A DNA stretch of 64,000 nucleotides from Viridibacillus arenosi. GTDB lineage: Bacteria > Bacillota > Bacilli > Bacillales_A > Planococcaceae. The notes below the pieces were generated by a model. That model was not told where the DNA came from, did not search any database, and saw only the letters and a program-made list of their open reading frames with translations. The stretch lies in the NCBI RefSeq assembly GCF_001955655.1, contig NZ_MSPW01000001.1, positions 1 through 64,000 on the forward strand, given 5' to 3'. The position numbers and the translations under genes are program-made. Below, one piece after another: positions 7,126 to 62,980 of this stretch; positions within the stretch are counted from its first letter, which is position 1; each line of letters opens with the position of its first letter.

Positions 7126-7452
7126 TTATTCATCCTCTACTTCTATTAAATAGATCCCGTCTGAGAATCCACCTCGTTTTTCTTTTTTCGATAAACGAAT
7201 CTGTTCCAGCTCCTCGTAAGAAACCCCATAAACAGCCAATGACGCATGAACTAACTCTAATATATCTGCAAGCTCCTCAACTGCGTCTTTTTGTACTTCT
7301 GCTTCATTAAATTCAAGTGCTTCTTCTGTCATTTTTAATTTCAATTCTAATAAATACTCTTTTGGTGCTAAAACTCTAGTTGAGTATTCTTTCCCAGTCT
7401 CCTCAATTATTTGCGGGATTAAATCTCTTACTAGTTTGTTGTATGTGGGCAC
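7126..7452 (-). CDS. MazG-like nucleotide pyrophosphohydrolase
   Basis: A 108-residue protein beginning MPTYNKLVRD, an opening shared by small MazG/phosphoribosyl-ATP pyrophosphohydrolase-like proteins. The metal-binding helices are visible as EEALEF (E43, E44, E47) and DAVEELADILE (E59, E60, D63). Such enzymes hydrolyse a nucleoside triphosphate to the monophosphate and pyrophosphate, usually to remove non-canonical nucleotides. The substrate cannot be told. It stands alone with a G-rich binding site before the ATG. Confidence 0.8.
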   Translation of the reverse strand: MPTYNKLVRDLIPQIIEETGKEYSTRVLAPKEYLLELKLKMTEEALEFNEAEVQKDAVEELADILELVHASLAVYGVSYEELEQIRLSKKEKRGGFSDGIYLIEVEDE

Positions 7453-7687
7453 TTTTGATCACTCCTTCTATGTTTTGCAATGAAGAAATAATTTCAATTA
7501 CTAATACTGATATAGCAACAATTTTAAATACTTAAACTTACCTATTTTCTGAATTTACGAGAACAAATGAAGAAAGAAAATATCACTATAAAGAGGTTAG
7601 ACCTACTCCAGAAACAATGGGAAAATTATTACCAAACATTATTATTAAATAGAACTTGCATAATGCATAAAAAAAGGTTTCAAATCC

Positions 7688-12759: not shown

Positions 12760-13250
12760 CGTTATTATTCTTGGCAACCCGACTATCATTATCCAAGAGG
12801 ATTTTAGATTCGTAGCTTTGCGTCCTTACCTTTCAATAAGTTTGCCTTTTTCAATTTTTATAAATAGTACTAATCTCATGCTCATATATTACTACAACAT
12901 TATATATTACTTGTCATTTTTTGTCGAACTAGAATTACAAGAATTTTTTCTTAGTTTACATACGAAAAATGCCCCCCTCCTTATGCATGTTAAATTCCAT
13001 ATTTTGTAATATTAAAAAATCCATATTTTTCTAGAATAGTGTGTAGCTCTATTACTTATTTATTGTTCCTTTGGTATAGGATTACCTTGTAAATCTGCTC
13101 TACAGTGAGGGCGGATATCTGAACTGTAATCAAATAAATTATTTCCACTGGAAATTAGTAGTATAATCTATGATAAAGAATGAACTTTCGTTTTATAACA
13201 AAAGGGGAAGAGGTAAAATAGCCTTTTTCAACTAACAGGTACGTTAGTTA
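12760..13250. other. Intergenic region with a small inverted repeat
   Basis: Nearly 500 bases without a recognisable gene. At 13230-13249 AACTAAC and GTTAGTT flank AGGTAC, preceded by a GGGGAAGAGG stretch; similar TTCAACTAAC...GTTAGTT elements are scattered between genes in many bacilli. The rest is plain AT-rich sequence. Confidence 0.4.
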
Positions 13251-58440: not shown

Positions 58441-58488
58441 GGGCTACCCTCAAAGGCCGGTATTCACCGACTTTCTGGACAGCCCCTT
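58441..58488 (-). terminator. Terminator of the riboswitch-controlled gene
   Basis: On the minus strand a nested stem GGGCT..C..AAAG.CGGT / ACCG.CTTT.GGG..AGCCC is followed by TATTTCTTTAT. It begins about a dozen bases after the stop codon. Confidence 0.7.
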
Positions 58489-58500
58489 TTCATACTACCG

Positions 58501-60312
58501 TTACTTCACTTTCACGCTAAGTTTGCTACTTTTATTTCCTGCTAGATCCTTCGCATAAATTGATAGTTTAGTATTTGCTTTTTGTTTTTTGATTTTCACA
58601 CTGAAATTTCCTTTGCTTGATGCTTTAGCTGAGCCAATTTTTTTATGTTTACTATTGTAGATTGTAATTGTTGCTTTTGCTTCAGTTTTACCTTTTACTT
58701 TTGTAGTTTTCGATGTGATTTTAGATACTGTTGGTTTTTTTGGTGCAATTTTATCTTTTACAATAATTGTTTTTGATACGCCTTTATTACCTACTGTATC
58801 TTTCGTTTTTACGACTAATTTTACGTTTGCTTTTTGTTTTGTAATCTTCAGCGTATAGTTACCTTTGCTACTTGCCTTTGTTGATGTAAGTAGTTTAGAG
58901 CCTTTATAAATAGAAACTGTTGCTTTAGCTTCTGTAGTCCCTTTTACAGTAGTTGCTTTGTTTGAAATTGTTCCTACTATAAGTTTTGTTGGTCCAATTT
59001 TATCTAGTACAGTAATTGTTTTTGTTACACCAGCATTGCCAGTTTCATCTGTAGTCTTTACTACTAATTTCACATTCGCCTTTTGTGCAGGAATCTTTAA
59101 CGCGAAAGTTCCTTTATTGTTAGCTTTTGTTGATGTTAGAAGTTTAGTTCCATTGTATATTGAGACTGTTGCATATGCTTCTGTTGTTCCTGTTACTGAT
59201 GTTGTTTTGTTTGAAATTGTTCCCACTGTAAGTTCAGTTGGGCCCTCAGTATCTGGATTTTCCACTGGTGGATTAGTATCTGGTATTTCACCAGCTGCTA
59301 ATCTCGCAAATGTTGATTTTCCATTCAATGCGTCTGCTAACGCAATGATTACTTGTTCAGTAGCCATTAAGTTTGTTTTAGAATCTTTAATCATCCATTT
59401 AAACGAACCATCTTCTAATTGATAATCATCAATCATTTTTTCAAGAATGTTAACTTTTTTACCGTCTTTTTCATAGCTCCATTTGTCAGCTGTTAAATCT
59501 TCTCCAGCTGTAGCTAGTCCCATAATAATACTTGCCATTGAGTTTGAATTATCTACAAAACCATCTTTTTGATATTTTGCATGAATACCATCTACTGCTT
59601 TTTTAATAGACTCGTTAATTGTTTCATTGGACTTATCAGTATTATTTAATAACGTTAATGCAGTTAAATTCCAACCTGTTACATCTAAGTCATCAGATGA
59701 ACCAAATCCAGAGAATAATCCTGAATTATTTTGTTTCTTTAAAATTACTTCTAAATGTTTGGCTTTATCATAGTCTGCATTTGCTAAGCCTAGCGCAATT
59801 GATGCCCAAGATTCACCGTATGCTGTGAAAAAACTACCATCAGCCTTTTGTTTGTTTTGTAAATCTTCAACAATGTTGCGTTGTCCAAGATTTGTTGGAT
59901 CTAATCCTAGAATATATGCACCAATAATAGTACCTGCGTCTTCATTTGAAGTGCTTGAAGTAGCCGCTTTTGGTTTCATCCAATAAGATTGTTCACTAGT
60001 AACTTCTGAGCCCTCTGCCCACTTGTAGTTTTTAATATCCATGCCTAGTGCATACATTGCTGATAATGACCAGTAGCCACTGTGGGAACTGATTACTCTA
60101 GAACTAATAGTTTGGTTGTTTATAATATAATATTGTTTTGCCTTCTCTAAAGAGTTCACTAGTTTTTCTTTGATTACTTGTGGTGATGTTGTTTGAGAAG
60201 TATGGTCTTCATTGTTTACTACCATATTATTTTCAGCTTGAGCTGTAAACGGCGATAATAGTGATAGTAGCATAACAAAAGCTAACACCATACTAGATGA
60301 ACGTTTTAACAT
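58501..60312 (-). CDS. Secreted alpha/alpha-toroid protein with three Ig-like repeats, cobalamin-regulated (probable B12-binding surface protein)
   Basis: 603 residues. Signal peptide 1-27 (cut after AQA). Residues about 45-345 form a helical-repeat toroid of the squalene-cyclase/transcobalamin type (KADGSFFTAYGESWASIALGLA, SSDDLDVTGWNLTALTLL, EDGSFKWM). Then three homologous Ig-like repeats of about 82 residues (about 355-440, 441-522, 523-603), each with VKGTTEAKATVSIY and QKANVKLVVK patterns, rich in lysine. A cobalamin riboswitch and terminator precede it. The vertebrate B12 carriers have the same toroid, and bacterial relatives use a DUF4430 second domain; here Ig repeats take its place. 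A role in capturing cobalamin at the wall is inferred. Confidence 0.75.
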   Translation of the reverse strand: MLKRSSSMVLAFVMLLSLLSPFTAQAENNMVVNNEDHTSQTTSPQVIKEKLVNSLEKAKQYYIINNQTISSRVISSHSGYWSLSAMYALGMDIKNYKWAEGSEVTSEQSYWMKPKAATSSTSNEDAGTIIGAYILGLDPTNLGQRNIVEDLQNKQKADGSFFTAYGESWASIALGLANADYDKAKHLEVILKKQNNSGLFSGFGSSDDLDVTGWNLTALTLLNNTDKSNETINESIKKAVDGIHAKYQKDGFVDNSNSMASIIMGLATAGEDLTADKWSYEKDGKKVNILEKMIDDYQLEDGSFKWMIKDSKTNLMATEQVIIALADALNGKSTFARLAAGEIPDTNPPVENPDTEGPTELTVGTISNKTTSVTGTTEAYATVSIYNGTKLLTSTKANNKGTFALKIPAQKANVKLVVKTTDETGNAGVTKTITVLDKIGPTKLIVGTISNKATTVKGTTEAKATVSIYKGSKLLTSTKASSKGNYTLKITKQKANVKLVVKTKDTVGNKGVSKTIIVKDKIAPKKPTVSKITSKTTKVKGKTEAKATITIYNSKHKKIGSAKASSKGNFSVKIKKQKANTKLSIYAKDLAGNKSSKLSVKVK

Positions 60313-60430
60313 TTGAATTCCTCCGATTTTATTTAGATTTGTTGGATTCGGAATTCGGCTTTTTCATGCTAGTCGACTATTTAACTCTTACTCATATATT
60401 AAACGTTGGAAATTAAAAGTTCTTAACAAT

Positions 60431-60462
60431 GAAAAAAGCTATTTCTCCATAGAGAAATAGCA
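60431..60462 (-). terminator. Riboswitch expression-platform terminator
   Basis: GCTATTTCTC pairs with GAGAAATAGC around TATG and is followed by seven T on the minus strand. It stands between the cobalamin riboswitch and the gene at 60312, so it is the likely off-switch. A smaller hairpin GACAA/TTGTC lies between aptamer and terminator (60481-60497). Confidence 0.85.
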
Positions 60463-60555
60463 TAAATACAAAGAAATATAGGACAACAGTATTGTCTAAT
60501 ATAGATTGTTTTGCCGTAATCTCACTTTATTCCGAAGAGTAGATATACGCTATGA

Positions 60556-60712
60556 ATTAGATAGGTCTCCTGGCTTATGCATCAATTTACTTTAAGGACC
60601 TTCCCGTATAAAACAGTGGTATTTCCTTATTTCATCAGCATTTACAGTTGCGGATACAGCTTCGGCATTTCACCGAATTCCCTTTTATGTATGTACTACA
60701 TCTAATTCTGGC
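60556..60712 (-). promoter_or_regulatory. Cobalamin riboswitch
   Basis: The minus strand shows the conserved order of elements: AAGGGAA, CGGTGAAATGCCG, AGCTGTATCCGCAACTGTAA, AAATAAGG.AA, CCACTG, GGGAAGG, and the closing B12 box AAGCCAGGAGACC. This is the adenosyl-/methylcobalamin aptamer, which normally turns off B12 uptake or synthesis genes when the cofactor is abundant. It lies about 240 bases upstream of the toroid gene with a terminator between. A pairing between part of the aptamer and the leader presumably forms the antiterminator. Confidence 0.93.
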
Positions 60713-60964
60713 ATACAATATTCACTTAATATAAACTTATCATAATATTGGAAATTAATCTATCGCATTTTGATTAGTTTTTGATATTTTACTCATAACA
60801 CATCAAATAATTATACAAATAAAGAAAGAAACGTATGTATATTTATTTCAAAATTGTATTTATCGATGAATCTTTTAATATGTTAATCACATAATTCCTG
60901 TTACACATGTTAAAATTGAATTAATATCCTTTTTAAAAGCATGTATGGTTGAAGGAGGGATGAA

Positions 60965-62128: not shown

Positions 62129-62980
62129 CTATTTTGCAAAAATTTGAGTTCCATATGTTGGATATTGAGCATTTTTACCTGAAACAACAATACCTATTCC
62201 AACTTTTTGATAATTAGGTGATAGTATATTTGCTCTGTGACCAGGGGAATTCATCCAACCATTCATAAAGCTTGTTGCAGTTGAATAACCTGCTGCAATA
62301 TTCTCACCTGATGCATATGTGTTATAACCTGACCCTTTCAGGAGGTTAGACCAGCTTCCATAAGTTGGACTTGTATGACTAAAATAGCGATTTTTCTCCA
62401 TATCTAATGAACGAATGATCGCTAGCTTTGTAAGCTTAGGATCTTGTTTTAAAGGTTTCAGTTTCTTTTTTGCACGTTCTTTATTTAAAATAGTAACTAT
62501 TTGATCTTGCATTTTTTTATTTCCTAAATCAATGTAACTGTCGACAAATTTACCAGATTTAATCCAGTATGTCTTGCTACCTTTTTTGACTTTGATCCAA
62601 CCATTTGTATTTGCAACACTCACTTTATAAATTCCAGCTGCAAGTTTCTTTGCTGATTTCGATCCTTTTTCTTTTTTATAAGTCGTTGTTTTTTTCGATA
62701 GATAGATATAATCACCAGTAAAACCGTCTTTTATCCACTTTTTATCTTTTGTTTGCATCCATTTATCTTTAGTTGTTTTTATAATCGTTACTTTCTTTTT
62801 TGCAGCTACTGTTGATTTTCTTCCATATCCGCCTTGCTTAGTAAACAATCTACTCTTTTCAGTTAGTGTTACTTTTTTTGTTTTTGGCGTACTTGCTTTA
62901 GCATAAATTGGACTTGCTAAACTGCCTAAAAAGATTATCGCCATGAAAAGGACGCTTAGTTTTTTTAGCATTTTCTTCAA
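62129..62980 (-). CDS. Secreted CAP-domain (YkwD-like) protein
   Basis: 283 residues: signal peptide (1-27, cut near YAK), a long SH3-like or repeat region (about 45-155) with many lysines, and a C-terminal CAP domain (about 160-283) with the conserved histidines in SHTSPTYGSWSNLL and HRANIL, plus SGENIAAGY. CAP proteins (SCP-like) are secreted; bacterial members are often spore- or wall-associated and of unknown activity. Single gene. Confidence 0.87.
   Translation of the reverse strand: MKKMLKKLSVLFMAIIFLGSLASPIYAKASTPKTKKVTLTEKSRLFTKQGGYGRKSTVAAKKKVTIIKTTKDKWMQTKDKKWIKDGFTGDYIYLSKKTTTYKKEKGSKSAKKLAAGIYKVSVANTNGWIKVKKGSKTYWIKSGKFVDSYIDLGNKKMQDQIVTILNKERAKKKLKPLKQDPKLTKLAIIRSLDMEKNRYFSHTSPTYGSWSNLLKGSGYNTYASGENIAAGYSTATSFMNGWMNSPGHRANILSPNYQKVGIGIVVSGKNAQYPTYGTQIFAK

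What the first reader, a model, noticed from the sequence alone, without database searches (positions are those of the whole stretch)
58501..60712. Cobalamin riboswitch controls a secreted transcobalamin-like toroid with Ig repeats in place of DUF4430
A textbook B12 riboswitch and expression-platform terminator precede a signal-peptide protein with an alpha/alpha toroid. The vertebrate B12 carriers use the same toroid, and some bacterial surface relatives pair it with a DUF4430 domain. Here that second domain is replaced by three lysine-rich Ig-like repeats, and there is no B12 ABC transporter beside it. This suggests a wall-anchored or released cobalamin scavenger of a type I have not seen described.
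Basis: partly seen in the sequence, partly recalled or inferred. Interest (0 to 1): 0.75.

Follow-up and report, generated by a model that had tools for sequence, protein, structure and literature searches.

The report
Riboswitch-controlled bacterial transcobalamin-like surface protein
A soil bacterium appears to make, only when vitamin B12 is scarce, a surface protein built like half of the human B12 carriers (transcobalamin, intrinsic factor), and its relatives encode such proteins next to a B12 importer, which suggests a way for Gram-positive bacteria to catch B12 outside the cell.

Summary
A full-length cobalamin riboswitch (RF00174, 101 bits), a terminator and a ribosome-binding site precede a secreted 603-aa protein: signal peptide, alpha/alpha toroid, three lysine-rich Big_6 repeats. 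The genome is a Viridibacillus.

The same genome has a second B12 riboswitch heading toroid-Big_6 protein, DUF4430 lipoprotein, EcfT, EcfA1A2 and an S-component whose family profile matches the proven B12 transporter subunit CbrT (6fnp, E=3e-21). Across the family, 19 of 20 fetched toroid loci have this riboswitch at most 225 nt upstream, and 14 carry the ECF genes.

The interpretation needs one correction. Ig repeats do not replace DUF4430; they sit where relatives carry a surface anchor (SLH, LPXTA-like or transmembrane). SLH domains are nearly absent from Viridibacillus (1-2 hits, against 60-87 in SLH-using relatives). DUF4430, the domain of the transcobalamin C-terminus, is lost from this polypeptide but encoded once, on the ECF lipoprotein.

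Most likely role: a B12-repressed, wall-retained cobamide-capture protein feeding the ECF/CbrT or BtuFCD importer. Cobalamin binding and hand-over are inferred. The model matches intrinsic factor and transcobalamin best, but only marginally over other toroids.

The parts
60542..60720 (-). cobalamin riboswitch aptamer (RF00174)
   Evidence: cmscan 101.3 bits, full model
60438..60461 (-). intrinsic terminator of the expression platform (10-bp stem, T6)
   Evidence: unchanged in V. arvi while the flank diverges
60320..60325 (-). ribosome-binding site CGGAGG
   Evidence: sequence; unchanged in V. arvi
58501..60312 (-). CDS, 603 aa secreted toroid-Big_6 protein
   Evidence: 94% identical orthologue of the N-terminal 339 residues in V. 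arvi
60235..60312 (-). signal peptide (residues 1-26, AQA cleavage site by inspection)
   Evidence: sequence
59296..60180 (-). alpha/alpha toroid (about residues 45-339), relative of the transcobalamin alpha domain and of squalene-hopene-cyclase-like toroids
58996..59247 (-). Big_6 repeat 1 (about residues 356-439)
   Evidence: PF17936, three stretches; exact border by inspection
58747..58995 (-). Big_6 repeat 2 (about residues 440-522)
   Evidence: PF17936; exact border by inspection
58507..58746 (-). Big_6 repeat 3 (residues 523-602)
   Evidence: PF17936 best stretch
58441..58486 (-). stem-loop terminator downstream of the gene, making it a single-gene unit
   Evidence: fold -30.3 kcal/mol for the 81-nt stretch; similar stem-loop after the V. 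arvi orthologue

Best explanation
The gene encodes a cell-surface cobamide-capture protein that is made when B12 is scarce. When the cofactor is plentiful it binds the leader RNA and transcription stops at the terminator; when it is scarce the gene is read. The protein is exported and its transcobalamin-alpha-like toroid binds cobalamin or related corrinoids. The strongly basic Big_6 tail (about +37) keeps it in the negatively charged wall, taking the place of the SLH anchors of its relatives. The ligand is passed to membrane importers of the same B12 regulon: the ECF transporter with the CbrT-like S-component and its DUF4430 lipoprotein, or BtuFCD. Shown here by computation: riboswitch, secretion signal, fold class, domain make-up, the sister operon, family-wide linkage to B12 riboswitches and CbrT-type ECF genes, and the anchor exchange. 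Inferred: cobalamin binding, direction of switching, wall retention and hand-over.
For: Riboswitch and terminator. Paralogue with the same architecture in a B12-riboswitch ECF operon of the same genome. Nineteen of 20 fetched relatives' loci have RF00174 19-225 nt upstream of the first toroid/DUF4430 gene; in the 20th the contig ends just upstream. The S-component family profile matches CbrT 6fnp at E=3e-21, with the next chain at 0.51; CbrT is an experimentally shown B12 transporter (PMC5997447). Toroid: weak PF01122 Cobalamin_bind match in the window protein and in 5 of 17 family members. Best structural matches are intrinsic factor and transcobalamin, Z about 15. DUF4430, the other half of transcobalamins (PMC4350170), is fused to the sister toroids. 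No cysteine anywhere, which argues against zinc prenyltransferases and thioester proteins. The anchor exchange follows the SLH content of the host genomes.
Against: No binding data. Structural Z for transcobalamins (14.6-15.1) is tied with drimenyl diphosphate synthase and glycosidase toroids (14-14.7); the model is of middling confidence (pLDDT 63.7, two near-identical sequences). Profile matches to solved toroids favour squalene-hopene cyclase over intrinsic factor (E 6.5e-7 against 0.8). In vertebrate carriers cobalamin sits between the alpha and beta domains (own knowledge), and this protein has no beta (DUF4430) domain. The organism also encodes a cbi/cob synthesis operon, so scavenging is not its only source.
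Confidence: 0.72

Rival explanations
1. The toroid has lost or never had cobalamin binding and serves as a structural or docking module of the surface B12 system, for example holding the DUF4430 lipoprotein or the partner toroid in place.
For: Vertebrate carriers need both domains (own knowledge), and this protein has only the toroid. Many relatives carry several toroids and DUF4430 copies per protein, so some may be structural.
Against: The window-class toroid is well conserved (41-46% identity with the nearer toroids of other genera, with invariant polar residues N225, N227, E241, Q290 in the numbering of the alignment's first row) and keeps its own riboswitch in two species.
Confidence: 0.15
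2. The protein is an enzyme of the alpha/alpha-toroid superfamily (terpene cyclase, prenyltransferase or polysaccharide-active enzyme) that happens to be controlled by B12.
For: Profile matches to squalene-hopene cyclases and structural matches to drimenyl synthase and unsaturated glucuronyl hydrolase near the top.
Against: No cysteine, so no zinc-ligand set or thioester. The class II cyclase DxDD motif is not complete: the window has DDLDVTG and relatives mostly xDxTG or DxDMTA. Secreted, and family-wide beside a B12 importer and DUF4430.
Confidence: 0.05
3. It is a cobalt or other metal/corrinoid-precursor capture protein rather than a cobalamin one.
For: A cobalt importer (CbiMNQO type, C33) is also behind a B12 riboswitch in this genome.
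Against: The linked S-component is CbrT-like, not CbiM/NikM-like. Toroid plus DUF4430 is the transcobalamin domain pair.
Confidence: 0.05

Closest known systems
Vertebrate transcobalamin / intrinsic factor / haptocorrin (PF01122 plus DUF4430-like C-terminal domain)
   Same: Secreted alpha/alpha toroid; best structural matches (Z 14.6-15.1); weak PF01122 profile match.
   Different: No C-terminal DUF4430 (beta) domain in this polypeptide; Big_6 repeats added; riboswitch control; about 10-15% identity.
Toroid-DUF4430-SLH proteins of the B12-riboswitch ECF operons in the same bacterial family (fetched here; no paper found that describes them)
   Same: Same toroid class (100/100 support), same riboswitch position, secreted.
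   Different: They carry DUF4430 and SLH anchors and most lie in the ECF operon; the window gene has neither and stands alone.
ECF-CbrT B12 importer of Lactobacillus delbrueckii (PMC5997447)
   Same: S-component of the sister operon is a CbrT relative (E=3e-21).
   Different: The held paper reports transport by ECF-CbrT and, in the passages read, no toroid or DUF4430 partner.
BtuG / BtuH surface B12-binding proteins of Bacteroides (PMC6143338, PMC8941943, abstracts)
   Same: Surface-exposed B12 capture feeding an importer.
   Different: Gram-negative, different folds and TonB-dependent transport (own knowledge).

Membership tests
Cobalamin riboswitch (RF00174) | match above the curated gathering score over the full model | tested here: met
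   101.3 against 31.5 bits, positions 1-189
Cobalamin riboswitch (RF00174) | corrinoid-dependent control of the downstream gene | not testable with these tools
   terminator present and conserved; no assay possible; antiterminator pairing not resolved
Transcobalamin/intrinsic factor family (PF01122) | match above the Pfam gathering score | tested here: not met
   16.4 bits for the whole protein and 18.1 for the domain alone, cut-off 25
Transcobalamin/intrinsic factor family (PF01122) | alpha/alpha-toroid alpha domain | tested here: met
   AF2 model matches 2pmv, 3kq4, 8ixu over 247-260 residues, Z about 15, tied with other toroids
Transcobalamin/intrinsic factor family (PF01122) | C-terminal beta domain (DUF4430-like) on the same chain | tested here: not met
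   no DUF4430 match; about 16 residues of linker between toroid and Big_6; sole genomic DUF4430 is on the ECF lipoprotein
Transcobalamin/intrinsic factor family (PF01122) | cobalamin binding | not testable with these tools
   needs an assay
CbrT-type ECF B12 transporter (sister operon) | S-component homologous to CbrT, with EcfT and EcfA beside it | tested here: met
   6fnp E=3e-21; CbiQ-type EcfT and double ABC ATPase
Class II terpene cyclase | DxDD motif | tested here: not met
   DDLDVTG in the window, xDxTG or DxDMTA in most relatives
Zinc prenyltransferase beta subunit | Asp-Cys-His zinc site | tested here: not met
   no cysteine in the protein
SLH-anchored proteins | SLH repeats | tested here: not met
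   no PF00395 match in the window protein; the relatives scanned have three each

The most novel reading that the evidence does not exclude
Viridibacillus has a split transcobalamin: free-standing wall-held alpha toroids (this gene and the one in the ECF operon) that close over cobalamin together with a separate DUF4430 beta lipoprotein on the membrane, which then passes it to a CbrT-type ECF importer. This would be a bacterial counterpart of, and perhaps a model for the origin of, the two-domain vertebrate B12 carriers.
Probability: 0.3. Interest if true: 0.8.

Novelty: new variant of a known kind. Interest (0 to 1): 0.6.

Why it matters
How Gram-positive bacteria catch scarce B12 outside the membrane is poorly described; the ECF importers are known, the extracellular part is not. 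The family found here links a transcobalamin-like domain pair to a proven type of B12 importer under B12 control. That makes both the bacterial capture step and the bacterial kinship of vertebrate B12 carriers directly testable.

Tried and rejected
(1) Single-sequence search of solved structures found only Big_6 relatives, not the toroid. (2) The DUF4430 family profile found no solved relative, so its kinship with the transcobalamin C-terminal domain rests on the Pfam name and PMC4350170. (3) Viral contigs: no relative. (4) genome contigs with a single protein gave only V. arvi. (5) Literature: searches for DUF4430 with cobalamin, transcobalamin-like bacterial proteins, CbrT with lipoprotein and transcobalamin, and SLH with B12 gave no paper describing this system; Rodionov 2009 is not held. 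(6) A clear antiterminator partner for the terminator was not found by inspection: a possible 5-bp ATAGC/GCTAT pairing is broken in V. arvi, so the switching details are left open. (7) The flanking patatin gene was not found in the third Viridibacillus genome, so loss or gain of the window gene there could not be dated. (9) NCBIfam NikL and Blp2 matches come from the Ig repeats and are far below their cut-offs; rejected as names.

Full report
What is there. The window comes from a Viridibacillus: the toroid-bearing half of the protein (residues 1-339) is 94% identical in V. arvi. On the minus strand a cobalamin aptamer (60542-60720, RF00174, 101.3 bits, full model) is followed by a terminator hairpin with a T-run (60461-60438), an RBS and an ATG at 60312. 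Aptamer, linker and terminator are nearly identical in V. arvi, while the stretch between terminator and RBS has diverged. The ORF runs to 58501 and encodes 603 aa: signal peptide with AQA site, toroid, a linker of about 16 residues and three Big_6 repeats (154.9 bits). A strong stem-loop follows the stop codon, and a similar one follows the V. arvi gene, so the gene is probably a single-gene unit.

The toroid. Single-sequence Pfam matches are sub-threshold: PF00432 Prenyltrans at 19.9 bits and PF01122 Cobalamin_bind at 18.1 bits. A profile of 17 family members reaches squalene-hopene cyclase (6.5e-7) and, only weakly, gastric intrinsic factor (0.8). VIA-align places intrinsic factor (2pmv, Z 15.1) and transcobalamins (14.6-14.9) at the top, but drimenyl diphosphate synthase (14.7) and glycosidase toroids (14.4 and lower) are tied. 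Foldseek E-values are all above 0.001. So the fold class is shown, and the kinship to transcobalamins is favoured but not proven by structure alone. There is no cysteine in the protein and no complete DxDD motif, against zinc prenyltransferase, thioester and class II cyclase functions.

The regulon. The genome carries nine RF00174 riboswitches. From the genes behind them (domain checks; names of the rest by inspection) they head CbiMNQO and a cbi operon, a btuF-like binding protein with cob genes, metE (two riboswitches in a row), a ribonucleotide reductase, an SBP_bac_5 ABC transporter, the window gene, and a decisive sister locus at C33:229000-236136. That locus encodes riboswitch, a 549-aa toroid protein with two Big_6 repeats, a lipoprotein with the genome's only DUF4430, a CbiQ-type EcfT, a double ABC ATPase and an ECF S-component. 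A profile of 16 such S-components finds one strong match among all solved structures: 6fnp, E=3e-21, the next being 0.51. 6fnp is ECF-CbrT, shown to transport cobalamin (PMC5997447).

The family. Of 261 genomes in the family, 45 have a relative of the window toroid. Twenty loci were fetched. Nineteen have RF00174 19-225 nt upstream of the first toroid/DUF4430 gene on the same strand; in the other the contig ends just upstream. With 3-14 such riboswitches per genome this cannot be chance. Fourteen of the 19 have EcfT, EcfA and EcfS in the stretch with a short DUF4430 lipoprotein, and L075 has the ECF genes without one; the usual order is toroid/DUF4430 protein(s), DUF4430 lipoprotein, EcfT, EcfA1A2, EcfS. 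The ECF-less loci are L056 (the V. arvi orthologue) and L065, L068, L069, which keep DUF4430 on the toroid protein. Two toroid classes exist, each with 100/100 support. The window toroid belongs to the class that in other genera is fused to DUF4430, often in the ECF operon, while the toroid of the Viridibacillus ECF operon belongs to the other class. The two classes are homologous by profile comparison (100% probability).

What the Ig repeats replace. In the eight relatives' proteins scanned the C-terminus carries three SLH repeats; one other (L074) has an LPKTA motif with a transmembrane tail and one (L073) a transmembrane tail, while L065, L068 and L069 end in other sequence. SLH counts are 60-87 per genome in SLH-using relatives but 1-2 in the three Viridibacillus genomes, 3 in the host of L073 and 0 in the host of L074. 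So the C-terminal module follows the anchoring system of the host, and in Viridibacillus it is the Big_6 array: pI 10.3 and net charge about +37, against pI 5 for the toroid. Similar Big_6 tails occur on other proteins of this genome. The Ig repeats are therefore best read as the anchor substitute. DUF4430 is a separate loss: every Viridibacillus genome has a single DUF4430.

Mechanism. Low B12 leaves the leader unbound, the gene is read, the protein is exported and held in the wall, cobamide is caught and then handed to the ECF-CbrT-like or BtuFCD importer. The riboswitch, export signal, fold class, linkage and anchor exchange are shown by computation. Switching direction (from the terminator architecture), binding, wall retention and hand-over are inferred. 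Because vertebrate carriers hold cobalamin between the toroid and the beta domain (own knowledge), the separation of toroids and DUF4430 on different chains raises the possibility of a split carrier; this is not shown.

Novelty. No held paper describes the toroid-DUF4430-ECF system, though the library is incomplete. The window protein is a DUF4430-less, Big_6-tailed, stand-alone variant of a family that probably works like a transcobalamin. It fails two tests of membership in the vertebrate family (Pfam threshold and beta domain), so it is filed as a new variant of a known kind.

Noticed in passing
window 12770-12856 (-): A c-di-GMP-I riboswitch (RF01051, 86.5 bits) elsewhere in the window; target gene not examined.
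   Followed up: no
L012 6805-7807: Two complete cobalamin riboswitches in a row upstream of metE, with a possible 76-aa ORF between them (7251-7481); V. arvi (G001:C15:1935097-1936097) also has two riboswitches about 800 nt apart.
   Followed up: partly
L011 4945-6576: An SBP_bac_5 (peptide/nickel type) ABC transporter behind a cobalamin riboswitch, perhaps a cobalt or corrinoid importer.
   Followed up: no
L062, L067, L069, L072 (large ORFs): Relatives' proteins of 1467-1973 aa with several toroids and/or DUF4430 domains on one chain, a modular expansion of the B12 surface proteins.
   Followed up: partly
L065, L068, L069: Stand-alone B12-riboswitch toroid-DUF4430 genes without ECF genes beside them, in other members of the family.
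   Followed up: partly
window 62129-62980 (-): Secreted CAP/YkwD-type protein near the riboswitch; no B12 link seen.
   Followed up: no
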